Shown: in pieces, positions 165-37,740 of the stretch | Position numbering within the stretch: position 1 is the first letter of the stretch | Layout of the letters: every line of letters begins with the position of its first letter | Source: Chitinophagales bacterium | GTDB lineage: Bacteria; Bacteroidota; Bacteroidia; Chitinophagales; LD1 | DNA: 45,232 nucleotides | Direction: 5' to 3' | Assembly: GCA_025057415.1 (NCBI GenBank) | Contig: JANWXI010000014.1 | Span: forward strand, 1 to 45,232 | The notes under the pieces: generated by a model | Database searches by the model: none | Told to the model about the DNA's origin: nothing | What the model saw: only the letters and a program-made list of their open reading frames with translations | Program-made: the position numbers and the translations under genes

Positions 165-325
165 CGGGTGAGGGATGCGAAGGGCGCGAGCGCAGCGAAG
201 CGGCCGCGCCCGCACCATTGAAAAAAAACGATGCGCGGGCGCGGCGGAAGCGCAAGCGCACCCCGTAGCAAGCCCGACCCCGCTGCTGTGCGTAGCCCTG
301 CGGAGCGCAGCAGCGGGGGCACCCC
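165..325 (+). repeat. GC-rich structured intergenic repeat, copy A
   Basis: First of five copies. It opens with CGGGTGAGGGATGCG and closes with GGGGGCACCCC. Internal stems: GGGCGCG 182-188 with CGCGCCC 205-211; a competing perfect 11-bp stem, GCCGCGCCCGC 203-213 with GCGGGCGCGGC 235-245; and a distal perfect 11-bp stem, CCCCGCTGCTG 278-288 with CAGCAGCGGGG 308-318. The first two stems share bases 205-211, so they cannot form together. It lies beyond the 3' end of the tryptophan dioxygenase gene and is far more GC-rich than its flanks. ORFs across it are not conserved in frame between copies, so it is read as non-coding. Confidence 0.88.
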
Positions 326-548
326 ATAAAAACTGAATAGACGATTAATTGTATGATACTGATTAAAATTTTTGAAGTAAAAAACAGTTGATGACATCCA
401 CACAGATGAGAAAGTTAACCTGAAAGTAGTAGATATTGATACGTTTGCCTGAAAATGTGGCTGTACTGTTATCTATCGTCTCACCATCATCTTCGTGAAG
501 CGTTCACAACGGAAAGGGGCGTACTCAAGTGTGGTGTTAGCGCGGGCG

Positions 549-577
549 AAAAACACTCAGAAAAGTGTAGTGTTTTT
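549..577 (-). terminator. Probable intrinsic terminator of tryptophan dioxygenase
   Basis: AAAAACACT (549-557) pairs perfectly with AGTGTTTTT (569-577) across an 11-nt loop, giving a U-tract on either strand. It lies about 50 nt after the stop codon of the minus-strand dioxygenase gene. The rest of 326-548 is AT-rich and shows nothing I can support. Confidence 0.6.
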
Positions 578-626
578 GTGCTGTGCGGTGATGTTTCGAA
601 TGACGTTTGCTGGATGTTTTACGCTG

Positions 627-1658
627 TCAGGTTTCAAAACCCAACCTCCTGCACAATTCGGGCGAAAGTGCCGGCAGTTTACCGCGCTCAATCATGAAAG
701 AGGTAAGGGCGGCAAATTCCTTAAAGATATAATGGCTTTGAAGGGCTCCGAAGAGGTAATCTTTACCTGTACTGCCTCCTGTGCCGGTGCGGGTGCCAAT
801 CATGCGGTGTACCATATTCAAATGGCGGTAGCGCCAGTTAGAAAGCGTGTTGTCTATCTCCAACAGATTGTTGATGAGCTGGAACGGTAATTGAAATAAG
901 GGATAGTCGCGGTACAGTAAGATGAACAATGCAGCGCGACGGGCGCGGGGAGTCATCCCATAATCTGCCGATGCGTTTTCGCTCATCACGAGCAAATCAA
1001 ACTGCTCTAAATTGTAACTTTCTTCGGGCATTAAGCTCGATGCGTAAAGCGCCCGGTATGTTTGCCAAAAAGGATGCGCTGCGCCGGCGCCCCATCCTTG
1101 GGGCCAGAGCGAAGGTTCGTCAAAAAAAGGCATGCGTTCTAACCATTCATTCACCAATTGCCGAAGAGATTTGGTGTTTTCGATTTGCTCAATGCGTTGT
1201 TTGTCTTCGGGCCTCAACTGACTGGTATAGTATTCTTTGCCGTAGCGCTGGTGCATGCGCAAACCCAGCAAGGCCTCCAGCTCTTTAAACTGCACACTCT
1301 GAAAACCCGAAGCAGGACGCAGCCGGTTGCGGAAGTCCAAAAAATCCAGCGGGGTCATGGTTTCGAGTATGTCTATTTGATGTACCAGCACATCCAGTAT
1401 TACTACCACCCGATTGAGACGGTGATTGATGATGAACAAATCGGGTGAGTTATCGCTGATGGTCGGCTTACTCAGCAATTCCATTACTGATTTCACTTCA
1501 TACAGTATTTGCTTAAACCACAACTCGTAACTTTGGTGTATTACGATAAACAACATTTCATCATGTGCGTGTTCTCCCGCTTTGTCGCTTTCAAGAGTTT
1601 GCGCCTGTAAGATTTTATCTAACTGGAGGTAATCGCTGTAATAAATTCCGTTGCTCAT
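627..1658 (-). CDS. kynA: Tryptophan 2,3-dioxygenase
   Basis: Haem enzyme that opens the indole ring of L-tryptophan to N-formylkynurenine, the first step of the kynurenine pathway; cytoplasmic. Family signatures are clear: IHQSYELWFKQ near residue 41 with the active-site His, FRNRLRPASGFQS with the substrate-carboxylate Arg, RHLNMVHRMIGT carrying the proximal haem His, and GTGGSTGKDYL near the C-terminus. I chose the ATG at 1658 (343 aa). A GTG nine codons upstream is possible, but homologous N-termini start close to the GIYYSDYL segment. No other kynurenine or NAD-synthesis gene is nearby, so pathway partners must lie elsewhere. A hairpin terminator follows at 549-577. Confidence 0.96.
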   Translation of the reverse strand: MSNGIYYSDYLQLDKILQAQTLESDKAGEHAHDEMLFIVIHQSYELWFKQILYEVKSVMELLSKPTISDNSPDLFIINHRLNRVVVILDVLVHQIDILETMTPLDFLDFRNRLRPASGFQSVQFKELEALLGLRMHQRYGKEYYTSQLRPEDKQRIEQIENTKSLRQLVNEWLERMPFFDEPSLWPQGWGAGAAHPFWQTYRALYASSLMPEESYNLEQFDLLVMSENASADYGMTPRARRAALFILLYRDYPLFQLPFQLINNLLEIDNTLSNWRYRHLNMVHRMIGTRTGTGGSTGKDYLFGALQSHYIFKEFAALTSFMIERGKLPALSPELCRRLGFET

Positions 1659-1813
1659 CTTGCAATTTTCAGGCGAATATGCCACACATTTTGCAGATGT
1701 GGTTTGATTTTCATCACCTCAGGTAAATTCTCTAAAATTTTATGCAGCCGGTAACACTACAAATACAGCGCCCTGCCCATGGCAGAATCAGGACAATTAT
1801 TACATTTACCCAA

Positions 1814-1821
1814 TAAATTTA
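1814..1821 (+). promoter_or_regulatory. -7 promoter box (TAAATTTA), leaderless type
   Basis: Matches the Bacteroidota -7 consensus TAnnTTTG except at the last base and ends 5 nt before the ATG at 1827. It favours that start over the in-frame ATG at 1779. No convincing -33 box. Confidence 0.45.
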
Positions 1822-1826
1822 ATCAG

Positions 1827-3239
1827 ATGAAAAAGTTACTCGCTTCGTTTGCCGCAGTCCTGATTGTAATAGTATATATTACCTCTTGCAAAAAGAAAGA
1901 CAATGACGATATACCCGACCCCTGCCCCACACCGCCTTGTGACACACCTTATGTGCAAAACACTCCTTGGCCTAAGTGGGTATTTCAGCACTGGGTGTGG
2001 GAGGATGAAGGTACTACCGCCAGCGCACGGGCGCTGGTGGATGATTACCTGGCGCACAATATTCCCGTAGCCGCCATTGTCATTGACAGTCCCTGGGAAA
2101 CGTGCTACAACACTTTTGAATGGGACAGCACCCTTTACCCCAATGCCAAACAGATGATAGATTACTTCCACAGTAAAAACATCAAAGTGCTGATGTGGAT
2201 TACCGGTGTTATCAACGTTGATTGCCAACCCTTGTACGATTATGCCAAATCACATAATTACTTTCTGAAAAACAGCGCTAACGACCCCAATCCTAAAGTG
2301 GTAAGCTGGTGGAAGGGAGATGGCAGTTTAATTGACTTTCACAATCCACAGGCAGTGGCCTGGTGGAAAGGGCTTATGGACAAAGTATTGGATATGGGTA
2401 TTGACGGTTGGAAATGCGATGGAGCTGACTTTTACGCTTTCCCGCAGGCATACTCACCCGGGAAAGGCGGCATGGTGACGCGTCTGGAACATTCGCATGC
2501 GTACTATCGCCTGTTTCACGACTACACACGGCAAAAGCGCGGCATCAGTACTGCCATCATGAGCCGCCCGATTGACAACTACAACCTCGGTGACTTTGGC
2601 GGTGATTTGGCGGCATTCTCTCCCAAAGACATTGGCTGGAGTTGCTGGGTAGGAGACCAGGATGCCACTTTTGCCGGCCTGAAAGCCGCGCTGAACAACA
2701 TGTACTGGAGTTCTGTATATCCGTATCTGATTTTTGGCTCAGACATTGGCGGTTATCGCGAAGACAACTCCTCGCCACCGCACTTCCGCACCAAACGCCT
2801 CTTTATCCGGTGGGCCCAGTTGGGCGCTTTTTCGGGTTTAATGGAAAACGGGGGAGGTGGCGAACACCGCCCGTGGATGTTTGATGCGCAAACAGACGAC
2901 ATTTATCGCAAATTAGTTGTGATGCGCGAAAAATACCTTGTTGGGTACCTGCTGGAGCAATCAGTAGCGGCCAACAACGCCGGTAAGAGTTTGATGACTT
3001 TTCTGGATAAAAGTAAATACTCTTACCTGTTGGGTACCGATATTTTTGTAACACCTATTTTAGATGATTTCGGTACGGTGACGATTAATTTCCCTGCCGG
3101 AAATGACAAGTGGGTGTATCTGTACGACAAAACAAAGGTGTATGACGGAGGCACTTCAATTACCAAGACATTCCCGATTGATGAGTTTCCGGTATTTGTG
3201 CGGCAGGGAACACCACTGGCAAACGTAATAACTCCTTAG
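1827..3239 (+). CDS. GH31 family alpha-glycosidase, lipoprotein
   Basis: Predicted retaining alpha-glycosidase (GH31, alpha-glucosidase/xylosidase superfamily) anchored as a lipoprotein. From the ATG at 1827 it is 470 aa, with a hydrophobic signal ending in a lipobox (ITSC, Cys21). The (beta/alpha)8 barrel follows almost at once: PWPKWVFQHWVW, VIDSPWETCYNTFEWD, VLMWITGVIN, then GIDGWKCDGAD with the nucleophile Asp (about 198). WVGDQDATF carries the likely acid/base Asp (about 277), and LIFGSDIGGY follows. The usual N-terminal mutarotase-like beta-sandwich of GH31 enzymes is missing, so substrate is not predictable. The next gene starts 12 nt downstream and is probably co-transcribed. An in-frame ATG at 1779 would put 16 extra residues before the signal peptide and is disfavoured. 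Confidence 0.9.
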   Translation: MKKLLASFAAVLIVIVYITSCKKKDNDDIPDPCPTPPCDTPYVQNTPWPKWVFQHWVWEDEGTTASARALVDDYLAHNIPVAAIVIDSPWETCYNTFEWDSTLYPNAKQMIDYFHSKNIKVLMWITGVINVDCQPLYDYAKSHNYFLKNSANDPNPKVVSWWKGDGSLIDFHNPQAVAWWKGLMDKVLDMGIDGWKCDGADFYAFPQAYSPGKGGMVTRLEHSHAYYRLFHDYTRQKRGISTAIMSRPIDNYNLGDFGGDLAAFSPKDIGWSCWVGDQDATFAGLKAALNNMYWSSVYPYLIFGSDIGGYREDNSSPPHFRTKRLFIRWAQLGAFSGLMENGGGGEHRPWMFDAQTDDIYRKLVVMREKYLVGYLLEQSVAANNAGKSLMTFLDKSKYSYLLGTDIFVTPILDDFGTVTINFPAGNDKWVYLYDKTKVYDGGTSITKTFPIDEFPVFVRQGTPLANVITP

Positions 3240-3251
3240 TGTAAACCGGGC

Positions 3252-4019
3252 ATGCGCGTCACATTTTTGGGAACGGGCACATCGGGCGGTGTGCCGCTTA
3301 TCGGGTGTCGCTGTGAGGTGTGCCTTTCAACCGATCCGCGCGATAAACGACTGCGCACCTCGATAATGATAGAAGAAGAGGACCTGCGCATTGTGGTGGA
3401 TTGTGGTCCCGATTTTCGTCAGCAGATGTTACGGACGGGAGTGGACCGATTGGATGCCATCCTGTTTACCCATGCACACAAAGATCACACAGGCGGTATA
3501 GACGATATTCGTTCCTTCAACTTTATTATGGGCAAGCCCCTCGATTTTTACTGTGACTATGCTACTGAACTCGGCATCAAGGAGCAATATGCTTATGCCT
3601 TCAGCGAAACCGACTATCCCTATTTACCCAAAATGACTTTTCACCGCATAGATGACGAGCATACGTTTTACATCCGCCACCTCGCTATTACCCCCATACG
3701 CGTAATGCACGGGCCGATGCCTGTGCTGGGTTTCCGTTTTGGCGAAAAATTTACTTATATCACTGATGCCAAAACAATAACGCCTGAGGAGCGCCGTAAA
3801 ATAACAGGCACAAAAATACTTGTGCTCAATGCCCTGCGCGAAACCGAACACTACTCACACTTTACTATCCGGCAAGCCATAGAAATAGTGGAGGACATTC
3901 GTCCTGAAACCTGTTACTTCATTCACATGAGTCATCAGTTTGGTCTGCACGCGCAAATGGAAAAGAAACTTCCGCCAAACATTAAAATTTCTTATGATGG
4001 GTTGCAAATCCTTATCTGA
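3252..4019 (+). CDS. MBL-fold hydrolase, PhnP-like phosphodiesterase family
   Basis: Metallo-beta-lactamase-fold hydrolase of the PhnP-like group (phosphoribosyl 1,2-cyclic phosphate phosphodiesterase and relatives). The N-terminus GTGTSGGVPLIGCRCEVC has the family's structural zinc loop (Cys19, Cys21, Cys24), and FTHAHKDHTGG (His74, His76, Asp78, His79) is the dinuclear metal site. Later HGPMPVLGFRFG and FIHMSHQFGLH supply further ligands. At 255 aa the length is normal and no signal peptide is present, so it is cytosolic. No phosphonate-use genes are nearby, so a general cyclic-phosphate or nuclease-like role is as likely as a C-P lyase role. Its end faces the glycosyltransferase gene 8 nt away. 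Confidence 0.88.
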   Translation: MRVTFLGTGTSGGVPLIGCRCEVCLSTDPRDKRLRTSIMIEEEDLRIVVDCGPDFRQQMLRTGVDRLDAILFTHAHKDHTGGIDDIRSFNFIMGKPLDFYCDYATELGIKEQYAYAFSETDYPYLPKMTFHRIDDEHTFYIRHLAITPIRVMHGPMPVLGFRFGEKFTYITDAKTITPEERRKITGTKILVLNALRETEHYSHFTIRQAIEIVEDIRPETCYFIHMSHQFGLHAQMEKKLPPNIKISYDGLQILI

Positions 4020-4027
4020 ACATCGGG

Positions 4028-4780
4028 TTACATCTTCTCGGCATATTTATACTTTAAGTAGGTATATTGATAAGCGTACATGCCCATCAACCAACCCACT
4101 TTACCGTCTCTCCAGGCGCCTTTGAATAAGTACCATTTAAACCACGCAGCCACCGGACTGACAATTCTTTTGTACCAACTCCGGTTTTTGTGGCGGCTTA
4201 CTATTTCGGCTGCCGATAAGCGTGCATAACGGTGCAACTTGTGTTGCATTTCCCATTTTGTATTGAAGGTGTAATGATAAATCGGTTCCTCAATGCGTTG
4301 TGCGTTGCGCTGGCCATGGGGAGTTTCGTGTACGATTGCGCTGCGTTCATCAAACTTTACTACCTGCCGGTTGAGCAGGCGCACCGGATAATCGGGGCAA
4401 ACTACCGGGTAGCATACGTGAACTTTTTTACCCAATACAAACCATTCTCTGCGTATTTCGTAGCAATCAGCCGTAAAGCCGGCAGCTTTCAGTTTTTTGA
4501 TTTTCTCTATAAGTTCATCAGAGGGTACTTCATCGCTGTCAAAAAACAATACATGGTCGTAACGACACTTTGCCTGAGCAAAGGCACGTTGCTCGCGGTA
4601 ATTATCAAAAGAGCGATATAGAATGCGACATCCGAACTCTTTGCCAATCTTGTAGGTGTCGTCTGCGCTCCCGCTGTCAACCAGCAGTATTTCATCTGCC
4701 ACCTTGGCGACCTGTTGTAAAATGGCTGGCAGGTGTTTTTCGCTGTTGTAAGTCAGTATATAGCAAGAGAGGTATTGCAT
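4028..4780 (-). CDS. Family 2 glycosyltransferase (WaaE/KdtX-like)
   Basis: GT2 inverting glycosyltransferase of 250 aa. It begins with the GT-A nucleotide-binding strand (SCYILTYNSEKHL), continues with ILLVDSGSADDT (residues 31-42), and has the metal-binding DSD at 81-83 in FFDSDEVPSDEL. The order of motifs and the HETPHG and IYHYTFNT segments resemble LPS-core beta-glucosyltransferases of the WaaE type. The C-terminus is basic and aromatic and probably peripheral to the membrane. A role in envelope polysaccharide or LPS core is inferred from family only. It follows the TSUP gene with a 4-nt gap, so the two are probably co-transcribed, although no functional link is evident. Confidence 0.88.
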   Translation of the reverse strand: MQYLSCYILTYNSEKHLPAILQQVAKVADEILLVDSGSADDTYKIGKEFGCRILYRSFDNYREQRAFAQAKCRYDHVLFFDSDEVPSDELIEKIKKLKAAGFTADCYEIRREWFVLGKKVHVCYPVVCPDYPVRLLNRQVVKFDERSAIVHETPHGQRNAQRIEEPIYHYTFNTKWEMQHKLHRYARLSAAEIVSRHKNRSWYKRIVSPVAAWFKWYLFKGAWRDGKVGWLMGMYAYQYTYLKYKYAEKM

Positions 4781-4784
4781 GGTA

Positions 4785-5537: not shown

Positions 5538-5681
5538 GCGGGTGCAAGAATATGACAATCGTTTCAAATCGTGGTCATGTTCAAATACCGGCTGTACGTT
5601 TAACTGCTCACAACAAGTTCTGGTAAGGTACAAATAAATTGTTAAACCAACCTGATAATCAGAGAGGGCATACGATATTGC

Positions 5682-5689
5682 TATTTTTG
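5682..5689 (+). promoter_or_regulatory. -7 promoter box (TATTTTTG), leaderless type
   Basis: Exact match to TAnnTTTG ending 5 nt before the ATG at 5695, which predicts transcription starting at or next to the start codon. A -33 TTTG at the usual distance is not clear. Confidence 0.55.
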
Positions 5690-5694
5690 CCGGG

Positions 5695-21384: not shown

Positions 21385-22064
21385 ATTAAGTATATTTTAA
21401 ATATAAAAAAGACATCATACAAAAACCGTGCCCCGGGCGAAAGTAAAAGGAAATACGAGAATTGTTCAAAACGAAAAAACATAATCATCAATAAAATAAC
21501 GGCACCACCGCAATTTTGTTTTGGGGGTGCCCCCTCCGCTTCGCTCTGCGCTGCTTCGCTTCGCTGCGGGGTCGGGCTTGCTTCGGGGTACGCATTCGCT
21601 CCCGTGCTCCACTCCGTTTCGCACCGCTTCGCTGCGCTCGCGCCCTCCGCATCCCTCACCCGACTTGCGCGCACCGATTCAACATTACTACCGGGCAATT
21701 TGCTATACGTAACTAAGTAATCTAAACTGCTTATGTACGCCTTCACAGTTTAACACAAACATAGCGCCCGTTGCAGGCCGATGCGCAATTTGGCATAACC
21801 CCACGCGGTATTCACATCTTTATCAAAATATATCTGAATAATAAACCATCATCTGATGAATGCGCTGCAGCGCATGTCCGTACACCAAAAAATTATAGTA
21901 ATTAGAGCGTACAAAATCTTAATAGACCATTGCGGTGTCAATAAAATTCAATACGGTTTCTGCCCGCCAAACTATCTTAATGTATCAACCCGATAACTCT
22001 GTGGTGCGGTAGTCGCATTACGAATATAGTGGCATAATGTAGCTGAAATTTCAGCAAATTACAA
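21385..22064. other. Long intergenic region holding repeat copy B and two palindromes
   Basis: 680 nt between two minus-strand genes. It contains repeat copy B (21523-21662), a perfect 16-bp palindrome ATGCGCTGCAGCGCAT (21860-21875) preceded by TCATCTGATGA, and a perfect 14-bp palindrome GCTGAAATTTCAGC (22042-22055) 10 nt beyond the T9SS gene's stop codon. None is followed by a clear U-tract. No credible gene in it. Confidence 0.6.
21523..21662 (-). repeat. GC-rich structured intergenic repeat, copy B (divergent, reverse)
   Basis: Reverse-orientation copy: GGGGTGCCCCC near 21524-21534, and the inverted constant end CGCATCCCTCACCCG at 21648-21662. The 5' conserved block (GAGCGCAGCGAAGCGG) and the GTACCCCG-AGCAAGCCCGACCCCGC block are retained, but the hairpin arms are degenerate (no CGCGCCC partner and a poor distal stem), so this is probably a decaying copy. 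Confidence 0.8.
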
Positions 22065-24240: not shown

Positions 24241-25296
24241 TTAACCTTTTCGCTTTTTTGCCCCAACGGGTTTCCGCCACCCCATGAGTATGGCGCTCTC
24301 CTCCACAATGCCGATAATACTCCGGTAATTGAGCGGAAATTCAAGCAATACATGTAGCATGCTGAGAAAATACAGCGCCAGCAGCCCCACATAATAATCA
24401 TACGCATATAACGCTACCGAGGCAAGCCATATCGCTACAACGGCTGCAAGTCGAGCCCGGGGTACCTGATGCCATTTGATAACCTCTGTTTTTGAAAACC
24501 AGTTCAGATAATGATATGTGTATGCAAATGCTATAAACCGCATTATCCCCAAGCCCTCGGGCGATTGAAATACCATTTCGCGGGTATATTGCCCCAGGTT
24601 AAATAGCTGGATAATTGCTTCGTTGAGTTGAATAAAGCCGCTGCTGATGAGCGCTTGCTGCGCTTTGGGGCTTACGGAGTAAAAACCAAATACCGGCTGC
24701 CACACAAAAAAACTCAGAGCACAAAGCACAAATACTGCGAGAGATGCGTATCCGGTTTTACTTTTGTTTTTCAGCGCACCGTACAAAATAAACAGCCCGG
24801 TAAAAATGAAAACATGGATCAGCGTAGGCAGGAAAATTCCGAAAATATATATAAACGGTTTTTCATGCATTAGGGCAAACCCCACCAAAAAAGCCGCCAT
24901 GAGGAAGATGGCCTTGTACACCCAATCTTTGAGCCATACCAGCGCCAGTGAACCGGCAAACGTGCCGAAAATAAGGGCCTGGGTTATGCTGAAACCCCTC
25001 GGCCCGATTACTCCATGCATCCACTCGTATGCGCGGTTAAAGCCCGCTGTGTCTTTCAGCATGTAAACCAGTGATACGATGGTAAGAATGATGCAGGGAA
25101 TTAACAGCCAGTAGTAATCTTTTTTGCCTGTGGTAAAGTATCCGCGCTGGTGCAGCCAGCTTATTTCGGTAAGGTAATGCAAGGGTCCGAGCACGGCATA
25201 CGAAAACAGAAATACTTCAAAAGGCAACACATAAGCTGCCATGGCAGCCAGTACCATCAACACCATGTTGGCTATGTCAATCCGGGAGGTATTCAC
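24241..25296 (-). CDS. Polytopic membrane protein with conserved-looking His residues
   Basis: 351 aa with about nine hydrophobic segments and a basic tail (GAKKRKG). Histidines sit inside or next to helices: GPLHYLTEISWLHQRG (near 37-52), PTLIHVFIFTG, YTYHYLNWFSK and MLHVLLEFPLN. Regularly placed membrane His residues can bind metal, as in Brp/Blh-type carotenoid oxygenases, but I do not see that family's signature and do not assign it. It is the last gene of a compact minus-strand run, 11 nt after ybaB. Confidence 0.75.
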   Translation of the reverse strand: MNTSRIDIANMVLMVLAAMAAYVLPFEVFLFSYAVLGPLHYLTEISWLHQRGYFTTGKKDYYWLLIPCIILTIVSLVYMLKDTAGFNRAYEWMHGVIGPRGFSITQALIFGTFAGSLALVWLKDWVYKAIFLMAAFLVGFALMHEKPFIYIFGIFLPTLIHVFIFTGLFILYGALKNKSKTGYASLAVFVLCALSFFVWQPVFGFYSVSPKAQQALISSGFIQLNEAIIQLFNLGQYTREMVFQSPEGLGIMRFIAFAYTYHYLNWFSKTEVIKWHQVPRARLAAVVAIWLASVALYAYDYYVGLLALYFLSMLHVLLEFPLNYRSIIGIVEESAILMGWRKPVGAKKRKG

Positions 25297-25307
25297 GATG
25301 CGCCAAA

Positions 25308-25592
25308 TTAACCAAGACCCGGGAGATTTGGCAAGTACCCTTTCATCTCTTGCTGCATAGCACTATCTGCTTTGGCGAGCACATCGTTCAGAGCTGCCGT
25401 CAGTTGGTGTTGCAAAGCAGCCACATCGTCAGTTTTCAGGATTTCCACTCTTTTTATTTTGCGGTCGCCTGTTGCTACAATTTTTACGTATTCATTTACG
25501 CTCTCTACCTCTAACGCCTCAAGGCGCTTGCGGCTTTCCTCCATTTTTTGCTGTAATTCCTGCAACTGTTTTAACTTGTCAAAAAATCCCAT
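25308..25592 (-). CDS. YbaB/EbfC family nucleoid-associated protein
   Basis: 94-aa DNA-binding protein (nucleoid-associated, dimeric). N-terminal helix with FDKLKQLQELQQKMEESRKR, central beta-strand block VKIVATGDRKIKRVEI, C-terminal helix QHQLTAALNDVLAKADSAMQ. Somewhat shorter than the E. coli protein, which is usual outside Gammaproteobacteria. The common dnaX or recR neighbours are absent. Lies between the antiporter and the His-bearing membrane gene on the same strand. Confidence 0.92.
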   Translation of the reverse strand: MGFFDKLKQLQELQQKMEESRKRLEALEVESVNEYVKIVATGDRKIKRVEILKTDDVAALQHQLTAALNDVLAKADSAMQQEMKGYLPNLPGLG

Positions 25593-25654
25593 ACGAAGAA
25601 TTTTATATGTGAAAAATAGTTCAGGTTGCTAAAGCCGGCTGTGGCAAGTATCTT

Positions 25655-26584
25655 TCATGCTACAGTAATTTTAAATATAAACAATGCGTACAACAATACA
25701 AACAAAGCCCCCTCCCAGGGCGACATCCTCTTGTCATGGGTGAGAAGGTAAAAGAATAAACCGGCGCTCAACATCACGGGAAGCGAAAAATTTTGCAGCG
25801 CAGCGGGTACTTCAATACTCCCGAAAACTGAGGCAATGCCGGCTACGCCCATCGCATTAAAAACACATGAGCCGAGTACGTTGCCGATAGCCATTTCAGC
25901 TTTACCCTCTCGAATGGCGCTGATATTTACGGCTAATTCCGGTAAGGTGGTACCCAGCGAGAGCACAGTCAATGCCACGATGGAAGCGGATATGTTCAAA
26001 TCTTTCGCCAGGGATGCCAGGTTATTGACTACCAACTCGGCTCCGAAATATATACCGGTAGCTGCTGCCACCAAAATGACAAATTGTAAAGCCGGAAATT
26101 GCTTCGTCCTTGCTGTACTGCCGTGGTTTTCCTGCCGCTCATTGTATATCAAATAAAATGAATATATAAGAAAGCCGATAATGCCGAAAACGCCTTCGCC
26201 AAAGCTGATTTTACCATCCACACAAAACAGTGTAAACATGAAAAAGCCCCCTAACAGAAAATGCAGGTCAATGAAGATGTATTTACTGCCCAGCACAATA
26301 TCCTGCCGGTTAATGACGGCTACTAAACCCGTGAGCAGAAGCAGGTTTGAAATATTGGCGCCAATTACGTTTCCCGATACAATTTCTGATACGCCGTGGT
26401 GTACAGATAAAATTGCGGAGATTAATTCTGGCAGAGATGTGCCGATGCCCACGATGAATACGCCAATCACAAATTCGGGAAAGCCGATAAATGCTCCGAT
26501 TTTCTCAGCAGCGCGGGTAAAGAACCTGGCGCTCAACAGCAATAACCCCAGCCCCAAAATAAACAGCAAAGCGTGTAAGAACAT
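25655..26584 (-). CDS. Calcium/sodium antiporter, YrbG-like
   Basis: Inner-membrane CaCA-superfamily exchanger of 309 aa with ten predicted helices in two inverted halves. The alpha-1 repeat is GIGTSLPELISAI ... GNVIGANISNLLLLTG and the alpha-2 repeat is VLSLGTTLPELAVNISA ... GNVLGSCVFNAMGVAG, both with the ion-binding Glu/Asn residues. I start it at the ATG at 26584; the codon just before is TTG. The upstream AI-2E-family gene ends 4 nt before this start, so they are probably co-transcribed. Confidence 0.93.
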   Translation of the reverse strand: MFLHALLFILGLGLLLLSARFFTRAAEKIGAFIGFPEFVIGVFIVGIGTSLPELISAILSVHHGVSEIVSGNVIGANISNLLLLTGLVAVINRQDIVLGSKYIFIDLHFLLGGFFMFTLFCVDGKISFGEGVFGIIGFLIYSFYLIYNERQENHGSTARTKQFPALQFVILVAAATGIYFGAELVVNNLASLAKDLNISASIVALTVLSLGTTLPELAVNISAIREGKAEMAIGNVLGSCVFNAMGVAGIASVFGSIEVPAALQNFSLPVMLSAGLFFYLLTHDKRMSPWEGALFVLLYALFIFKITVA

Positions 26585-26588
26585 CAAT

Positions 26589-27638
26589 TTACTTTTTGTA
26601 TATGTATTCGTTTCTGTAAATCTTCAATAATATGATAAAGTATGAAATCAGCAGCGGACCGAAGATGATTCCCACAAAGCCGAAAACATTCAGCCCCAAC
26701 ACCACTCCAAAAAACGTTATGAGCGGATGCACATCCCCCAGCTTTTTTTGCACGACAAACCTGAATACATTGTCAATGTTGGTAATCACCAAAGCCCCGT
26801 AAATCAGCAGAGCTGCTGCCTGCCAGGTATTGCCGGCAATAAACATCACAATACCTATCGGCAACCACACGATGGCGGTACCTACAACCGGCAACACACT
26901 CATGATACCGGTGATAACAGCCCAGAAAAACGGTTCATTGACACCAAACACCAGATAACCGATGTAAGCTGTAATGGCCTGTAATACGGCAAGTATTCCT
27001 ATGCCAATACTGTTGCTTACGGTCATATTTTTTAACTCGGTGAGCAGGAGGGCGTCATTTTCGTCATCAAAGGGCATGTTACGGCGCACTGTGTCCTCTA
27101 ATTTCCGGGCGCTGGTCAGCATAAAATAAAGGATGAAGTACAAGACAAAAATATCGGTTACTAACCCGGCTGTTGCGGATAAAAAGCGCGGTAAAATATC
27201 GGCAACAAAGGTGGTGACCTGGCGGATGGTGTCTTCCGTAAGCAGATTAACGCCAAGGTAACCTTCTATGTACTCACTCCATTGCTCCAGGATCATAAGC
27301 GCATCGCGGTAGTGCTGTATCAGAAAACCAATTTTATTGGATAGCATGAGCGTGACAAGCAACACAGGCAGTACCATTACGATAAACGATAACAACATAA
27401 GCGAAAATGCCGCAATGTGTCTGTTCCACCTGCGGCGGGACTTCTCTGTCAGGTAGAAGTAAGGTTTGCGCAGCAAAACATAAAAAACAACCGCACCCAG
27501 AAATGCGCTAATGAAGCTGCGCAGCATCCAAAATAAGAAACCGCCCAACGCAAATAACAGGATGAGAAAAAGCGTTTGCTTGAGTTTATGCGGATTGAGT
27601 TGCACAGCCCAATGATACGAAGCATTTTGAAAATACAT
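26589..27638 (-). CDS. AI-2E family (PerM-like) membrane transporter
   Basis: 349 aa with eight predicted helices. N-terminal helix pairs (LILLFALGGFLFWMLRSFIS), a central soluble stretch (residues about 115-170), and the family-typical C-terminal block ITGIMSVLPVVGTAIVWLP ... GALVITNIDNVFRFVVQKKLG ... LGLNVFGFVGIIFGPLL. Family members export diverse substrates including AI-2 and Na+/Li+; the substrate is unknown here. The start at 27638 lies only 12 nt from the divergent nitronate monooxygenase start. A GTG at codon 12 is an alternative. Confidence 0.9.
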   Translation of the reverse strand: MYFQNASYHWAVQLNPHKLKQTLFLILLFALGGFLFWMLRSFISAFLGAVVFYVLLRKPYFYLTEKSRRRWNRHIAAFSLMLLSFIVMVLPVLLVTLMLSNKIGFLIQHYRDALMILEQWSEYIEGYLGVNLLTEDTIRQVTTFVADILPRFLSATAGLVTDIFVLYFILYFMLTSARKLEDTVRRNMPFDDENDALLLTELKNMTVSNSIGIGILAVLQAITAYIGYLVFGVNEPFFWAVITGIMSVLPVVGTAIVWLPIGIVMFIAGNTWQAAALLIYGALVITNIDNVFRFVVQKKLGDVHPLITFFGVVLGLNVFGFVGIIFGPLLISYFIILLKIYRNEYIYKK

Positions 27639-27646
27639 TAACCTTG
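27639..27646 (+). promoter_or_regulatory. -7-like box (TAACCTTG), leaderless type
   Basis: One mismatch to TAnnTTTG, ending 4 nt before the ATG at 27651. It occupies most of the 12-nt gap between two divergent start codons. Confidence 0.4.
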
Positions 27647-27650
27647 CGGC

Positions 27651-28592
27651 ATGAAAAATCGCGTAACGGAGTTATTTGGTATTGAGTATCCTATCGTGCA
27701 GGCGGGTATGATCTGGTGTAGCGGGTGGGAGCTCGCCTCGGCTGTGAGCAACGCAGGAGCGCTGGGGATCATTGGTAGCGGAAGTATGTATCCTCACATT
27801 TTGCAGGAGCATATCCGGAAATGCAAAGCCGCAACCGCAAAACCCTTTGCTGTTAATGTTCCGTTGCTTTATCCGGATATAGATAAACACATTCAGATTA
27901 TTATTGATGAAAAGGTGCCTGTGGTGTTTACCAGCGCTGGAAATCCGAAAACCTGGACCGGACACCTGAAACAACACGGTATAAAAGTGGTACATGTGGT
28001 ATCCTCATCCAAATTTGCAAAAAAGGCAGAGGAAGCGGGCTGCGATGCAGTGGTGTGTGAGGGTTTCGAGGCAGGCGGGCACAATGGTCGCGAAGAAACC
28101 ACCACGATGGTTCTCATACCGCAGGTCCGGGCAGCCACCACGCTGCCGTTGATAGCCGCCGGGGGTATTGCCACCGGGCGAGGCATGCTGGCAGCCATGG
28201 CTCTCGGTGCCGAAGGCGTGCAAATCGGTACGCGCTTTGTTGCCACCCCGGAATCATCGGCTCATGAAAACTTCAAACAAAAAGTAATCAGCTTACAGGA
28301 GGGCGACACGCTCCTTTGCATGAAAAAAGTTGTACCCGTGCGTTTGGTCAAAAATCAGTTTCAGCAACGAATACAGGAAGCCGAAGACCGCGGCGCCACC
28401 AAAGAAGAGTTAATACAAATACTGGGTCGCGCACGTGCCAAAAGAGGAATGTTTGAAGGCGACCTTCAGGAAGGCGAGCTGGAAATCGGGCAGGTTGCAT
28501 CGTTGGTGCGGCAAATAAAACCGGCTGCCGAAGTAGTTCGCGAAATCTGGCAGGAGTTTATTGTGGCAAAAGAGGAATTGTGCCGTATGTAA
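27651..28592 (+). CDS. Nitronate monooxygenase / FabK-like FMN enzyme
   Basis: 313-aa TIM-barrel FMN protein. IEYPIVQAGMIWCSGWELASA at the N-terminus, the substrate/FMN loop CEGFEAGGHNG with the catalytic His, AAGGIATGRGMLAAMALGAEGVQIGTRF for phosphate binding. The block TTTMVLIPQV after the GGHNG motif is shared between nitronate monooxygenases (NMO/NPD) and FMN-dependent enoyl-ACP reductase FabK, so fatty-acid reduction remains possible. SerA follows on the same strand after 16 nt with its own -7-like box. Confidence 0.85.
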   Translation: MKNRVTELFGIEYPIVQAGMIWCSGWELASAVSNAGALGIIGSGSMYPHILQEHIRKCKAATAKPFAVNVPLLYPDIDKHIQIIIDEKVPVVFTSAGNPKTWTGHLKQHGIKVVHVVSSSKFAKKAEEAGCDAVVCEGFEAGGHNGREETTTMVLIPQVRAATTLPLIAAGGIATGRGMLAAMALGAEGVQIGTRFVATPESSAHENFKQKVISLQEGDTLLCMKKVVPVRLVKNQFQQRIQEAEDRGATKEELIQILGRARAKRGMFEGDLQEGELEIGQVASLVRQIKPAAEVVREIWQEFIVAKEELCRM

Positions 28593-28596
28593 AAAA

Positions 28597-28604
28597 CATA
28601 TTTG
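28597..28604 (+). promoter_or_regulatory. -7-like box (CATATTTG), leaderless type
   Basis: One mismatch to TAnnTTTG; ends 4 nt before the ATG at 28609 and supports that start. Confidence 0.45.
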
Positions 28605-28608
28605 CTTT

Positions 28609-29844
28609 ATGTCAAAACCAGTTACATCATATCCCAAAGACAAAATAAAAATACTGCTGCTCGAAAATATCAGCGAGGTAGCAGTGCAGGAGTTTTACGA
28701 TGCCGGTTATCATCAGGTTAAGCGTCTGCCGGTTGCGCTCGATGAACGGACGCTCATGCAGGAAATACGGGACGTACACCTGCTGGGCATTCGCAGCAAG
28801 ACGCAGATAACGGAAAAAGTACTCAACAGAGCCGACAGGTTATTAGGCATAGGTTGTTACTGTATAGGAGTGAACCAGGTGAACTTGAAATCGGCTACGC
28901 AACACGGTGTGGCCGTTTTCAATGCGCCGCATGCCAATACGCGCAGCGTGGCCGAGTTGGTTATCGGGCTTAGCATCATGCTCATACGCAAAATACCCGA
29001 CAAGAACAAAGCTGCTCACGATGGCGTGTGGCTGAAGGACGCGAAAGGATGCTTTGAACTGCGCGGTAAAACTATGGGCATTGTTGGCTACGGCAACATC
29101 GGTTCGCAAGTGAGTGTTTTGGCAGAGGCCATGGGAATGGATGTGATTTATTACGATATAGAACCCAAGTTGCCGCACGGCAACGCAAAGCAAATGCGTT
29201 CCCTTAGGGATGTACTGCGCAGAAGCCACGTGGTGACGCTACATGTCCCCGGTGGTCCCGGCACGCGCAATCTTATTAACGCGGGCGCTATTACCGATAT
29301 GCGTAAAGGAGCCATCCTCATCAACTACAGCCGGGGCGATGTAGTGGACCTGCACGCGCTGCGCGAGGCGCTGCTCAGCGGTCACCTGAGCGGCGCAGCC
29401 ATTGATGTGTTTCCGGAAGAACCGGAAAAAAACGGCGCGGTTTTTACATCTGTGTTGCAAAACATTCCCAACGTGATCCTCACACCCCATATCGGAGGCA
29501 GTACCGAGGAGGCACAACACAACATCGGCCTTGACGTGACCGCCAAGCTCCTCAACTACCTTGAAAAGGGCAGCACCAACGGGTCACACTCCATACCCCC
29601 GCTCAATCTCAGCATGCAGGATAACACACACCGCATTTTGCATATTCACCGCAATGTACCGGGCGTATTGGGCGAGATAAACTCCCGTCTCTCTACGCAT
29701 GGCATCAACATATTAGGTCAGTACCTCAAAACAAACGATGAAATAGGTTATGTAGTGTTGGATGTGGATACGCAGCTTTCACGCGAGGCATTTGCGCTGC
29801 TGAAGGATGTAAAACACACTATCAAAGTTCGGTTGCTGTACTAA
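28609..29844 (+). CDS. serA: D-3-phosphoglycerate dehydrogenase
   Basis: First enzyme of serine biosynthesis (3-phosphoglycerate to 3-phosphohydroxypyruvate, NAD-dependent). 411 aa from the ATG at 28609, almost the length of E. coli SerA. LLGIGCYCIGVNQVNL, the NAD motif GIVGYGNIGSQV, catalytic-region motifs NYSRGDVVD, DVFPEEPEKN and TPHIGGSTEEAQ, and a C-terminal ACT domain (HRNVPGVLGEINSRL) for serine feedback. An upstream in-frame start at 28561 would overlap the previous gene and adds a Cys-rich stretch without family similarity, so it is rejected. Confidence 0.96.
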   Translation: MSKPVTSYPKDKIKILLLENISEVAVQEFYDAGYHQVKRLPVALDERTLMQEIRDVHLLGIRSKTQITEKVLNRADRLLGIGCYCIGVNQVNLKSATQHGVAVFNAPHANTRSVAELVIGLSIMLIRKIPDKNKAAHDGVWLKDAKGCFELRGKTMGIVGYGNIGSQVSVLAEAMGMDVIYYDIEPKLPHGNAKQMRSLRDVLRRSHVVTLHVPGGPGTRNLINAGAITDMRKGAILINYSRGDVVDLHALREALLSGHLSGAAIDVFPEEPEKNGAVFTSVLQNIPNVILTPHIGGSTEEAQHNIGLDVTAKLLNYLEKGSTNGSHSIPPLNLSMQDNTHRILHIHRNVPGVLGEINSRLSTHGINILGQYLKTNDEIGYVVLDVDTQLSREAFALLKDVKHTIKVRLLY

Positions 29845-29903: not shown

Positions 29904-30055
29904 CGGGTGAGGGATGCGAAGGGCGCGAGCGCAGCGAAGCGGCCGCGCCCGTACCTTTGAAAATAAAACAACACACGGGCGGGGCGGAAGCGAATGCGTA
30001 CCCCGTAGCAAGCCCGACCCCGCTGCCTTGCATTGCTTGGCAGCGGGGGCACCCC
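29904..30055 (+). repeat. GC-rich structured intergenic repeat, copy C
   Basis: Constant ends CGGGTGAGGGATGCG and GGGGGCACCCC. Stem GGGCGCG 29921-29927 with CGCGCCC 29944-29950. The competing stem GCCGCGCCCGT with ACGGGCGGGGC has one mismatch. The distal stem is CCCCGCTGCC 30018-30027 with GGCAGCGGGG 30039-30048, perfect, with a different tip from copy A's, showing paired change. Confidence 0.88.
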
Positions 30056-31552: not shown

Positions 31553-31554
31553 TA

Positions 31555-33897: not shown

Positions 33898-33954
33898 AAT
33901 GCCGGTAAAAATGTCTGCCAGTAATGAAACAAAGTAAAAAACTTGCCGGCGGGA

Positions 33955-35550
33955 TTACAGAAATATTTTCAATACATCACCCACCCGGATGGGGCGTGAG
34001 CTAATATGAGAGTTATCGGCTTTTATTTTTTCAACAGTAACTCCCTGATAACGCTGTGATATACTCCACAGGGTATCACCGGGTTGTACCACATGTAACA
34101 CGCAGCGGGGTTTCTGTTCGGTTGAAACTGTTTCTGCTTCAGTTTCGCTTGCGTTTTCAGTGGTTTGTTCCTCCTCTGCCGGCTCATTATGTTCCAATTC
34201 TGTATGAATGTCAGGCAGGAGGGTTGTGTCCTTCTCGAGTATACGCGGTGCGAATGCCTGAGCATAAGTATTGTTGATGATAGCGGGATTGGTTTGCGGC
34301 AAGTAAATTTTCAGTTTTTGACCGTGGTATAGTTTTGTGCTCCGCAACCCGTTCCATTTTTTGATAGAAGCAACTGCCACACCGTGTTTAGAGGCAATCT
34401 GGGTTATCGTTTCGTTTTTGCGCACTTTGTAGTAAATTACCTTGGGTGCCGATGCAGCAATGATTGCTTCGGTATCAGCATAGTAGATAGAAGTATCGTT
34501 CAGTATGGTTTTTTCATTTGCAATGAATGAGGCAACGCACTTTACGGGTAAGTTCAGCGGAAAACCGCTCTCTACATACGGTACAATACCGCGTTTCAGC
34601 GAAGGGTTGATGAATTGCAGTTCATCCTCACCGATACCGAGTACCGAGGCGATGTGTTTGAGTGTTACCTTACCTCTGAACATTACGGTATCAATGGCAT
34701 AAAGGTCGTAGCGTGGTGTCTGGGGAAGGATTTTAAAATCTTTGTGGTAGTGCAGTACGTATAGCGCAGCAATAAAACTGGGCACGTAGTTGCGTGTTTC
34801 AGCCGGCAGGTAGTGCATGATGGCCCAGAAGTTTTTAATGCCGCCTGCGCGTACAATGGCTTTGTTTACATTACCGGGTCCGGAGTTATATGCAGCAAGT
34901 ACCAAAGCCCAGTCGCCATACATTTTGTAAAGATCCTTCAGGTATGCTGCGGCTGCCTCGGTGGCTTTGCGGGGATCTCTGCGCTCATCCACGTATGTAT
35001 CGGCATGTACCCCGTACATCTGCCCGGTGGTGTACATCAGTTGCCATAGTCCGGTAGCGCCGGCACGCGACACAGCAATGGGGTTAAATGCCGATTCGAT
35101 TACCGGAAGGTACTTTAACTCTAAAGGCAAGCCGTGCTTGTCTAAGATCTCTTCAAACAGTGGGAAATAAACCTGGGCATTCGCTAAGCATCGGCTCATC
35201 AGCCCCCTGCGTTTGTAGGCAAAGGTTTCTAAAAATGGCTTCACGGCGCTGTTGTACGTAAGCGGAAACTCAGCAGGTATTTGTTTCATCTTTTCGGTAA
35301 TCTGAGCATCAGTATAGTGAGGCACCTGGTCGGGGGTGAGCAGGATGCTCTTGACTACCTGCGCATCGCTGACGAAAAATTTATCGCGTGTGAACAGGGA
35401 GTTGCTCATGCTGTCCAGAGCTGCAATCACCGGGTCAACTCCCTGGTGCGAGGAGAAGTAAGAAGTTTGGGCGAAAATGCCACTTGTGCAACTACACAAA
35501 TATGCCAGCAGCATCACGTATGTTGCTCGTAAGCTTTTTTTCGTTGCCAT
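33955..35550 (-). CDS. mltD: MltD-like lytic transglycosylase with two LysM domains
   Basis: 531-aa periplasmic or lipid-free secreted murein hydrolase. Signal peptide near residues 1-28. The SLT/MltD catalytic domain is around residues 130-270, with ESAFNPIAVSRAGATGLWQLM carrying the catalytic Glu, then VLAAYNSGPGNVNKA. LysM 1 is YYKVRKNETITQIASKHGV (about residues 370-415). A Glu/Thr-rich linker follows, then LysM 2, HVVQPGDTLWSISQRYQG, at the C-terminus. It cleaves glycan strands and probably works with PBP1C encoded downstream. Confidence 0.94.
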   Translation of the reverse strand: MATKKSLRATYVMLLAYLCSCTSGIFAQTSYFSSHQGVDPVIAALDSMSNSLFTRDKFFVSDAQVVKSILLTPDQVPHYTDAQITEKMKQIPAEFPLTYNSAVKPFLETFAYKRRGLMSRCLANAQVYFPLFEEILDKHGLPLELKYLPVIESAFNPIAVSRAGATGLWQLMYTTGQMYGVHADTYVDERRDPRKATEAAAAYLKDLYKMYGDWALVLAAYNSGPGNVNKAIVRAGGIKNFWAIMHYLPAETRNYVPSFIAALYVLHYHKDFKILPQTPRYDLYAIDTVMFRGKVTLKHIASVLGIGEDELQFINPSLKRGIVPYVESGFPLNLPVKCVASFIANEKTILNDTSIYYADTEAIIAASAPKVIYYKVRKNETITQIASKHGVAVASIKKWNGLRSTKLYHGQKLKIYLPQTNPAIINNTYAQAFAPRILEKDTTLLPDIHTELEHNEPAEEEQTTENASETEAETVSTEQKPRCVLHVVQPGDTLWSISQRYQGVTVEKIKADNSHISSRPIRVGDVLKIFL

Positions 35551-35710
35551 AACTGCGATAATAACGAATTCTGCAGTACAAAAATTTTAAATCATATACG
35601 CTTTTGACCGTATCCACAACATATCGCAGGTAAATAACGTGCTTTTCGCCCTATAAATTTAAGTTTTCCACTATTTTTAATGAAAATATAATCTGTGCAG
35701 GATATTGTAC

Positions 35711-35745
35711 AAAAAACAAAAAGCCCCTCTTTCCCAGAGTGGGCT
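35711..35745 (-). terminator. Intrinsic terminator of the PKD/T9SS gene
   Basis: AGCCC-CTCT pairs with AGAG-GGGCT through a single bulged T and a 5-nt loop (35722-35745). On the minus strand it is followed by TTTTTGTTTTTT. It lies about 28 nt beyond the stop of the gene at 35773. Confidence 0.8.
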
Positions 35746-35772
35746 GTTTTGTTTGAAGATAGTATTTTGATA

Positions 35773-36999
35773 TCAGTGGATGAGTTGTACTTTCTTTACT
35801 TCGCGAAGATTTTCACCGGTAATTTCTACCAGATACACTCCGTTTGTGAGATGATCAAGTTGCACAGAGTGTGCATTTGACTCAGCCGTTGATTGTGATG
35901 CAAGGCGGCCATCTAAACCGTACACATTTAACCGTGTCAGCTGTGTGTTATTGGCAAATACCGTAATTGTTTTACCAGTCACTTGAATACGCACATTGTT
36001 GTTTTCTACATCGTTTGTGCCGGAGGTAATTTCATTCACAAATACTGTGGTTGTAGTTTGGTCCATGCAGCCATACTGGTTAGAAGCTTTCATTTTAACG
36101 GTGTAAGTGCCGGGTTCATAGTAAGCAATAGTAGGGTTGGCAACACCGTAGATGAGAGTGCCGTCGCCAAAGTCCCATTCAAACTGATTGGCATTTTGTG
36201 CCAGGGCGTGAAAATCAATCTCCTCGCCTATTGTAACTTCATGATCAGATACCTGAATATTGGCAGTAACAACAATACCGCTTACGCTGAACGGACGAGT
36301 TACCGTATAACCGTTATAGCTTAGCAGCAACATGTATTCACCGCTGGGTAATGAAGTAAACGTCACGGTTGAATTTACATTAGTATGTGACCCTATAAGG
36401 TTGTTTTGCGTGTCGTACAAATTGCAGTACGTCCAGGTAATGGAGTTGTCAACCTGCACGGTGATAGAGCCATTATTATCGCTGCAGCCGGCATTCGTTG
36501 ATGAGAAGGAAGCCGGAGTAGAAACATGCAAAAAGAAACGTCCTGTAGTTGGCTCGTTGGCATCCAGCGTGGTAGTGTAAGCGCCACTGCGCAGGTCGTG
36601 GAAAGTCCCGTTTAATTTATCCTCCAGGCGAATGATAGATGTCGGGTCAAAGTTGTCCAGTAACATCGGGATGATGAAATATTGATCCGTTTGGTCGACA
36701 TCTGCTCCGATAGCAACTACCTCGGTTTGATAAAGTGTACCGATACCGTTTATAGAGCAGGGAGTGTTATCAGAAGTGACACTCCACAAAACAGGCACAC
36801 CCGCTACACCGCTGAAAGTTTTTTGCGCATCTTCCAGATAAACATAATTCGGATTGATGGCGTGGTCAAAGTAAATTGTGGTTTGATCCAGTTGGCCTGT
36901 AGTGGATGACTGCAGGCGAAGTTGCACGGTCTTTTTGTCCTGGGTTGCCCATGCCAGGTTGGCTACTAGTAGTGTGAGTGTGATTATTGGGGTTTTCAT
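35773..36999 (-). CDS. Secreted PKD-domain protein with T9SS type A sorting domain
   Basis: 408 aa. Signal peptide 1-18 (LTLLVANLAWA). Residues about 20-150 are beta-rich and unassigned (LRLQSSTTGQLDQTTIYFD). About 155-245 is an Ig/SprB-like beta-sandwich with Cys residues. About 245-325 is a PKD domain (FEWDFGDGTLIYGVANPTI ... GTYTVKMKASN). The last 75 residues are a type A sorting domain (LTRLNVYGLDGRLASQ ... TNGVYLVEITGENLREVKKV). Expected on the cell surface; ligand unknown. Confidence 0.88.
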   Translation of the reverse strand: MKTPIITLTLLVANLAWATQDKKTVQLRLQSSTTGQLDQTTIYFDHAINPNYVYLEDAQKTFSGVAGVPVLWSVTSDNTPCSINGIGTLYQTEVVAIGADVDQTDQYFIIPMLLDNFDPTSIIRLEDKLNGTFHDLRSGAYTTTLDANEPTTGRFFLHVSTPASFSSTNAGCSDNNGSITVQVDNSITWTYCNLYDTQNNLIGSHTNVNSTVTFTSLPSGEYMLLLSYNGYTVTRPFSVSGIVVTANIQVSDHEVTIGEEIDFHALAQNANQFEWDFGDGTLIYGVANPTIAYYEPGTYTVKMKASNQYGCMDQTTTTVFVNEITSGTNDVENNNVRIQVTGKTITVFANNTQLTRLNVYGLDGRLASQSTAESNAHSVQLDHLTNGVYLVEITGENLREVKKVQLIH

Positions 37000-37267
37000 A
37001 TTGGGGTGGTCTTTAGTGTGTCTTTTATCCCTTCAACCCCGTGTTCCTTGTATATCGCAGGCAGGTTCCGATGCCTTTGATTACCTGTTTTTACGCACCA
37101 ACGGCATAAAAGTTACAGGTTACTCAATTTTTTGAGGAAGGAGTCAGAATAAAAATTCGGAATACTACCGGTTAGTTTGAATCTTTGTGTATTATCTTTT
37201 GTGTTTTATTGCATTTACTTATAACACAATGTGGCAATTAATTTTACTGATTTTTGTTGTTTGTTAT

Positions 37268-37402
37268 GGGGTGCCCCCGCTGCTGTGCTCCGCAGATCTG
37301 TGTGCAGCAGCGGGGTCGGGCTGACCCGCTCCAAGTCCTCGCCGCGCCCGCGCTAAAAGCGCGGGCGCGGGCTGCGGGCTTTCCGCTCGCATCCCTCACC
37401 CG
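37268..37402 (-). repeat. GC-rich structured intergenic repeat, copy D (reverse)
   Basis: Inverted copy with GGGGTGCCCCC at 37268-37278 and CGCATCCCTCACCCG at the other end. The distal stem CCCCGCTGCTG 37275-37285 with CAGCAGCGGGG 37305-37315 is perfect, and the central stem has 13 perfect pairs, 37342-37354 with 37358-37370, closed by an AAA loop. The 5' block of the family is partly replaced, so only the stems and ends are shared. Confidence 0.83.
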
Positions 37403-37480
37403 GCAATCTCGATTAAAAAATTACATCATCCATATAAGAAAAGGTAAAGCATCTTGCAGCCTTCTGGCAACTACTTTTTT

Positions 37481-37508
37481 GCGCGCCCGTACTGCAGGCA
37501 TGGGCGCG
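37481..37508 (+). repeat. Remnant of the structured repeat between copies D and E
   Basis: CGCGCCC (37482-37488) pairs with GGGCGCG (37502-37508) around a 13-nt loop and is followed by GAGAAG, like the central hairpin plus GGCGGAAG of copies A, C and E. No constant ends remain. Probably a decayed or partial copy. Confidence 0.45.
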
Positions 37509-37578
37509 GAGAAGAGTAGAATTGTGACTAGAAACAATAGTAGTCAAACGACTTTTCGCCCTATTACTCCTCTGCAAT

Positions 37579-37740
37579 CGGGTGAGGGATGCGTAGGGCG
37601 CGAGCGCAGCGAAGCGGCCGCGCCCGCACCGCTGATAAACAATCAACGCGTGGGCGCGGCGGAAGCGACAGCGTACCCCGTAGCACGCCCCACCCCGCTG
37701 CGGCGCGTGAGGTACGAGCGCGCCGCAGCGGGGGCACCCC
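37579..37740 (+). repeat. GC-rich structured intergenic repeat, copy E
   Basis: Complete copy with CGGGTGAGGGATGCG and GGGGCACCCC ends. Stem GGGCGCG 37596-37602 with CGCGCCC 37619-37625; competing stem 37617-37627 with 37650-37660 (10 pairs plus one G-U). The distal stem is the longest in the window: CCCCGCTGCGGCGCG 37693-37707 with CGCGCCGCAGCGGGG 37719-37733, 15 perfect pairs. The flanks resemble those of copy C. Confidence 0.88.

What the first reader, a model, noticed from the sequence alone, without database searches (positions are those of the whole stretch)
165..37740. Five-copy GC-rich intergenic element with co-varying hairpins
Copies A (165-325), B (21523-21662 reverse), C (29904-30055), D (37268-37402 reverse) and E (37579-37740) share a start CGGGTGAGGGATGCG and an end GGGGCACCCC but differ inside. 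The distal stem has a constant base (CCCCGCTGC) and a variable tip that stays paired: 11 bp in A and D, 10 bp in C, 15 bp in E, with different loops. The central stem also persists: 11 bp in A, 10 of 11 in C, 10 plus a G-U in E, 13 bp in D. Paired changes argue for selection on structure, as RNA or as DNA cruciform. In A, C and E a second stem (GGGCGCG/CGCGCCC) shares bases with the central stem, so two folds are mutually exclusive. All copies lie between genes. I recognise no named family.
Basis: partly seen in the sequence, partly recalled or inferred. Interest (0 to 1): 0.8.

Follow-up and report, generated by a model that had tools for sequence, protein, structure and literature searches.

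The report
Expanded Flavo-1-like folded repeat family
The five repeats belong to a family of more than two hundred folded, intergenic copies seen so far in one bacterial species, an enlarged and reshuffled branch of a poorly understood RNA motif called Flavo-1, and they look more like a spreading repeat than like an ordinary small-RNA gene.

Summary
The start motif occurs 237 times in this genome, against 2 for the reversed control; I read 109 complete copies. Stems covary: distal-hairpin arms pair better with their own partner than with swapped ones (4, 0 and 0 of 20,000 permutations), and an inner helix changes C-G to T-A in step. The proposed mutually exclusive second fold is not supported.

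"No named family" is partly wrong. Rfam finds nothing in the window, but a model of my copies finds relatives in other genomes, one of which Rfam calls Flavo-1, RF01705, at 62.4 bits. A model built only from relatives' Flavo-1 loci hits copy D at E 1.9e-7.

So this is a diverged, enlarged Flavo-1 branch: exchangeable cores and hairpin tips in a constant frame, about 235 copies here, none called by Rfam's model, and absent from four comparable gaps of the nearest relative. I read it as a proliferating, probably non-autonomous repeat whose single-stranded fold is selected. How it spreads is unknown; transcription could not be tested.

The parts
165..325 (+). Copy A: long core (L), tip T2, ATAA-type 3' end
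21523..21662 (-). Copy B: short core (S), degenerate T2-like tip with a broken distal stem, CAAA-type 3' end
29904..30055 (+). Copy C: long core, tip T1, CTAAA-type 3' end
37268..37402 (-). Copy D: D core, closest to canonical Flavo-1; model R2 (relatives only) matches 37401-37300 over the model's full length
37579..37740 (+). Copy E: long core, tip T3 with apical GYGAGGNACGAGC, ATAA-type 3' end
45..164 (+). 5' flanking repeat of copy A (class ending GGGCTGCCGGAGCGCTTGCC), shared with other copies over about 120 nt; outer limit approximate
37479..37578 (+). 5' flanking repeat of copy E (class with a GC-rich hairpin and ending TTACTCCTCTGCAAT); outer limit approximate

Best explanation
The copies are a species-specific, high-copy, enlarged branch of the Flavo-1 structured motif. 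Each copy is a closed multi-branched fold of one strand: an outer helix (GGGTG/CACCC), an inner helix (GGG-TGC/GCA-CCC), an exchangeable core, an exchangeable 3' hairpin and an A-rich 3' end. Shown: copy number, covariation, frame shared with Flavo-1, exchange of modules, patchy copy number among genomes, absence from comparable gaps of the nearest relative, avoidance of genes. Inferred: the copies spread in this lineage as a non-autonomous repeat, the folded single strand (RNA or single-stranded DNA) being recognised by machinery acting in trans. The mobilising enzyme and any present activity are not shown.
For: 237 motif hits, both strands, against 2 control hits. 0 of 59 relatives match by sequence at E 0.001. 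Covariation (relatives: 30 of 40 loci have a perfect 5-bp outer partner, swapped mean 8.2, maximum 17 in 2000 swaps). Cores and tips are combined freely. Flavo-1 link. Flavo-1 is patchy and often multicopy: 19 of 30 family genomes at E 0.01, 70 in G019, 0 here; 52 of 119 order genomes at E 1e-4. Three element gaps are much shorter in G004, and a fourth of equal size has no Flavo-1 match.
Against: No copy reaches the Rfam gathering score and RF01705 gives 0 hits at E 0.01 here. Only D-core copies match R2 clearly; C scores E 0.26, A and B nothing at E 10, E only a 35-nt fragment at E 7.3. No target duplication, no RAYT above cut-off here. No copy was seen to move. Non-random placement near gene ends and a 27:11 antisense bias in tandem genes also fit a regulatory role.
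Confidence: 0.6

Rival explanations
1. Extragenic regulatory or mRNA-protecting structure: copies at gene ends stabilise 3' ends, insulate neighbours or bind a protein, as proposed for REP/BIME sequences (recalled), and are kept for that use.
For: The 3' side faces a gene stop in 43 of 80 copies, 24 of them at 44-86 nt; strong hairpins; antisense bias 27:11 in tandem genes (p 0.014).
Against: 37 of 80 face a gene start instead; neighbours are unrelated, 23 of 155 having any paralogue in the set; no T run follows the hairpin in sense; absent from comparable gaps of G004.
Confidence: 0.22
2. A family of independent trans-acting small RNAs, as Rfam's type label for Flavo-1 (Gene; sRNA) implies.
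For: Rfam type label; conserved fold and a conserved loop in T3 tips.
Against: About 235 copies in varied contexts; in Flavobacterium psychrophilum Flavo-1 hits lay in sense or antisense of transcribed regions and many in none (PMC9723704, passage seen). Not testable here.
Confidence: 0.08
3. Mutation alone: palindrome correction by template switching and gene conversion between copies makes stems look selected.
For: One copy (C130_42285) carries a T2 tip in inverted orientation; arms change together.
Against: The inner helix covaries although its strands lie about 95 nt apart with other stems between; T3 loops stay while stems change; the outer helix covaries between genera.
Confidence: 0.08

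Closest known systems
Flavo-1 RNA motif (Rfam RF01705)
   Same: Frame (..GAGGGAT...AGCCCGACC..), the D core, placement in Bacteroidota and patchy multicopy distribution
   Different: RF01705 calls no copy here. Most copies read have replaced cores (L 70, S 21, other 4, against D 14 of 109); the outer helix and 3' hairpin are not paired positions of the Rfam model as printed; copy number is about 235
REP sequences with RAYT transposases
   Same: High-copy intergenic palindromic repeats on both strands
   Different: Elements are 86-185 nt and multi-branched, GTAG is replaced by GTAAC together with its partner, no RAYT above cut-off here, and the G019 RAYT unit ends in its own repeat
MITEs
   Same: Short non-coding interspersed repeats
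   Different: Ends complementary over only 5 bp, no target duplication, internal covarying folds

Membership tests
Flavo-1 (RF01705) | Score of 42 bits or more with the Rfam model | tested here: not met
   No match at gathering in the window, none for D/E at E 5, 0 in the genome at E 0.01
Flavo-1 (RF01705) | Core and frame as in relatives' Flavo-1 loci | tested here: met
   Copy D and sister D-core copies by R2, built without this genome; for the L and S cores only through the shared frame
Flavo-1 (RF01705) | Expressed small RNA | not testable with these tools
   No RNA data available
REP/RAYT | Cognate RAYT gene in the genome or flanked by the element | tested here: not met
   One sub-cut-off IS200-like remnant here; the duplicated RAYT unit of G019 excludes the elements
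MITE | Target-site duplication | tested here: not met
   99 copies: no clear excess over shuffled pairs at k 3-9 (0.081 against 0.057 at k 3, 0.030 against 0.022 at k 4, none beyond)
Intrinsic terminator | Hairpin followed by a T run in sense | tested here: not met
   The 12 nt after the element are A-rich, about 60% A at +5 to +12; not tested experimentally

The most novel reading that the evidence does not exclude
Flavo-1 as a whole is not a small-RNA gene family but a structure-dependent mobile element of Bacteroidota: the folded single strand is what is copied and inserted, the A-rich 3' end marks the junction, and copies exchange whole stems and loops as modules, in this species up to about 235 copies.
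Probability: 0.3. Interest if true: 0.85.

Novelty: new variant of a known kind. Interest (0 to 1): 0.6.

Why it matters
Flavo-1 was tabulated in 2010 as a candidate structured RNA (row seen) and is typed as a small RNA in Rfam; a transcriptome study found its hits uninformative about function (passage seen). A genome in which a Flavo-1 branch has grown to about 235 copies with interchangeable parts, together with an outer helix and 3' hairpin outside the Rfam model, is a natural mutagenesis set. It defines a fuller element, makes 'small RNA or mobile repeat' testable by strain comparison and RNA-seq, and shows a case in which the current model calls no copy at all.

Tried and rejected
Viral contigs, exact pattern: 0 hits; plasmids: no match. 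Elements as rearrangement breakpoints: neighbours conserved in G004 in 4 of 38 element gaps against 3 of 19 element-free gaps of 250 nt or more, so no excess (only a third of G004 was at hand). Carried 5' cargo: the unshared 5' flanks gave no sign of sequence copied from elsewhere in the fifth of the genome I held; many of the non-element matches printed lie at contig ends. RAYT as mobiliser: of 18 RAYT-like loci fetched, 3 hold an element at E below 0.01 within about 2 kb or to the contig end (L430, L431, L433), but these three, and the IS200-type L434, had been chosen because an element was already known nearby; none of the other 15 does. In G019 the duplicated RAYT unit ends in its own inverted repeat. 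Only four of the RAYT-like proteins were checked with NCBIfam, all over its cut-off. Mutually exclusive folds: not supported.

Dropped rows: 27 of 107 copies lacked a called neighbour and were left out of the context counts; the long-core alignment used 59 of 103 complete copies; model R1 used 32 sequences and R2 22 of 26 relatives' loci; one of 41 relatives' loci had no core match; L377 and L380, near contig starts, were printed from the wrong place and left out; 17 of 107 copies had no readable inner-helix partner. About half of the roughly 237 copies here were never read. Covariation counts are not corrected for relatedness.

Full report
WHAT WAS CHECKED. The five copies are present with the stated ends. 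The window is contig C55 of a 3.22-Mb, 196-contig genome. A gene with a Por_Secre_tail domain points to Bacteroidota (from general knowledge). Genome G236 of the same order has the start motif at C1:1496002, the same place as in the named Chitinophagales record behind L103, so the order is probably Chitinophagales (inference).

HOW MANY. The start motif with up to one mismatch occurs 129 times forward and 108 reverse, with 1 and 1 for the reversed control; CGGGTGAGGGATGYG gives 122 and 106 against 0 and 1. By sequence, 0 of 59 relatives match at E 0.001, 17 of them congeneric. Among 298 genomes of the order, this one included, no other has more than 4 motif hits. I extracted 113 copies, 109 complete, from 707 kb.

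ANATOMY. The frame is nearly constant: CGGGTGAGGGATGYG at the 5' side, usually GTARCNAGCCCGACC before the 3' hairpin, GGGGCACCCC at the end, then mostly C+A/T+AA or ATAA. Cores and tips are combined: core L (70 copies: 21 with tip T1, 29 T2, 17 T3, 3 other), S (21: 8, 7, 6), D (14: 10, 1, 2, 1 unread), others (4: 2, 0, 2) (classes set by my own patterns). T3 tips keep an apical GYGAGGNACGAGC while the stem below varies; the same loop caps the core hairpin of Flavo-1 loci L420 (G019) and L386 (G021), as read. Of 104 copies with a 5' flank of 40 nt or more, 53 share it with no other copy; the rest fall into a few 5' repeat classes, the largest linking 43.

COVARIATION. Hairpin arms pair better with their own partner than with a swapped one of the same tip class: T1 4, T2 0, T3 0 of 20,000 permutations (19, 37 and 25 distinct hairpins). 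In the inner helix the base after ATG is C opposite G in 76 copies, T opposite A in 10, T opposite G in 2; 2 C copies are shifted by one base and 17 could not be read (107 copies; Fisher with the shifted ones counted against, 7e-10). In 59 long-core copies the central stem swaps G-C for C-G in 9 and C-G for T-A in 8. The tool's own count on 32 copies finds 7 of 38 pairs with a change on both sides, and a small covariation term (-0.6). None of this is corrected for relatedness. The proposed alternative stem breaks in 13 of 59 at one pair, the partner base being C in all 59. G.T cells outnumber A.C cells 22 to 10 (p 0.05), a weak hint that the sense strand folds.

WHAT IT IS. A covariance model of 32 copies (R1) over 30 genomes of the family hits, besides this genome, G019 seven times, G004 once and G014 once at E 0.01. 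Those loci show the same frame with other outer pairs, GCGTG/CACGC and GCGCG/CGCGC among them. Rfam calls the G014 locus Flavo-1 at 62.4 bits, gathering score 42. RF01705 is patchy and often multicopy: 19 of 30 family genomes at E 0.01 (13 over the cut-off), 70 in G019, 27 in G010, 18 in G017, 0 here; 52 of 119 order genomes at E 1e-4 (scored to at most 36 per genome).

LINK TO FLAVO-1. In G019, L359 holds both kinds: an S-core element and a Flavo-1-like locus (29.9 bits, below the cut-off) share ACAATGCCGCGTGAAGGAT. The D core of the window (AGCGGAAAGCCCGCAG...GAGGACTTG.AGCGG) recurs in that locus and in L391 of G004, itself a sub-cut-off Flavo-1 match (36.9 bits). R2, built from 22 relatives' loci without this genome, matches copy D over the model's full length (31.4 bits, E 1.9e-7, best in the window). 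In the whole genome it gives 22 matches at E up to 1; besides copy D, 12 are D-core copies I had read before, one of them only at E 0.97, and three more, read afterwards, show the same frame and core; the other six I did not inspect. Copy C comes second in the window at E 0.26, not significant; A and B do not appear at E 10, and E only as a 35-nt fragment at E 7.3. L and S copies therefore join Flavo-1 only through the shared frame. As the gathering score is not met, I call this a diverged branch, not a filed member.

EXTENDED FLAVO-1. Relatives' loci show an outer helix and, in many, a 3' hairpin outside the paired positions of the Rfam model. A perfect 5-bp partner of the outer strand is found in 30 of 40 loci, against a mean of 8.2 and maximum of 17 in 2000 swaps. 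After the element, 12 of 33 relatives' loci begin CCAAA, CCCAAA or CATAA; A is 54% at +4 to +7 and 31% at +21 to +40. In this genome A is 86% at +3 to +4, 60% at +5 to +12 and 24% at +61 to +100.

PLACE IN THE GENOME. 80 of 107 copies had both neighbours called. The 3' side faces a gene stop in 43, 24 of them at 44-86 nt, and a gene start in 37; the 5' side faces a start in 53 and an end in 27; in tandem genes 27 are antisense and 11 sense (p 0.014). Gaps with an element keep a median of 375 nt once the element is subtracted, against 41 nt for gaps without one. 23 of 155 neighbours have any paralogue in the set. No copy lies in a credible gene.

GAIN OR LOSS. In the nearest relative at hand, G004, five element gaps had both neighbours within 8 kb: three are much shorter in G004 (680 here against a projected 101 nt; 901 against 39; 349 against 73), one has the same size (980 against 1022) and no Rfam match at E 1, one has other genes in between. 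Of 14 element-free gaps of 100 nt or more, 12 differ by less than 80 nt. Adjacency is lost in 34 of 38 element gaps and 16 of 19 element-free gaps of 250 nt or more, so I claim nothing about rearrangement.

HOW IT MAY WORK. Best reading: a proliferating, non-autonomous repeat under selection to fold. Shown: numbers, fold, modules, patchiness, avoidance of genes. Inferred: spread in trans through a single-stranded intermediate. There is no target duplication and no RAYT above cut-off here. In G019 two near-identical RAYT copies lie near elements, but the duplicated unit ends in its own inverted repeat, which speaks against RAYT. Transcription could not be tested.

LITERATURE. 'Flavo-1' as a whole word is in 3 papers of the library, RF01705 in 4. 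I saw only matching passages: PMC2864571 (a table row), PMC9723704 (hits in sense or antisense of transcribed regions, many in none, no clue to function), PMC9029176 (two mentions). These searches and three broader ones (listings only) showed me no report of Flavo-1 as a repeat or mobile element; the library holds open-licence papers only.

Noticed in passing
L430 and L431 (G019:C7, G019:C14), 1672-2363: Two near-identical (92%) RAYT units bounded by their own inverted repeat; each has a Flavo-1-like element starting at position 2446, 83-86 nt beyond the same end and in the same orientation, although the elements and the sequence between differ.
   Followed up: partly
C130_42285+ of G000 (contig C130): Its T2 hairpin tip is the reverse complement of the usual T2 tip, suggesting an inversion of the tip.
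   Followed up: no
L134 / G000:C116:15926-16051: Remnant of an IS200-like TnpA (54-60 aa), below the Pfam cut-off.
   Followed up: partly
window 24241-29844: The genes here lie elsewhere in G004 (contig C6) while the genes on both sides are contiguous on G004 C22; copy C sits at one border, no copy at the other.
   Followed up: partly
window 1-60: Long homopolymer runs at the contig end, possibly an assembly fault inside the 5' repeat of copy A.
   Followed up: no
109 complete copies read in G000: GCGNAGC occurs 270 times and GCGNNAGC 212 times on the sense strand, against 32 and 1 on the other strand and about 20 each after shuffling: small GNA/GNNA loops may recur.
   Followed up: no
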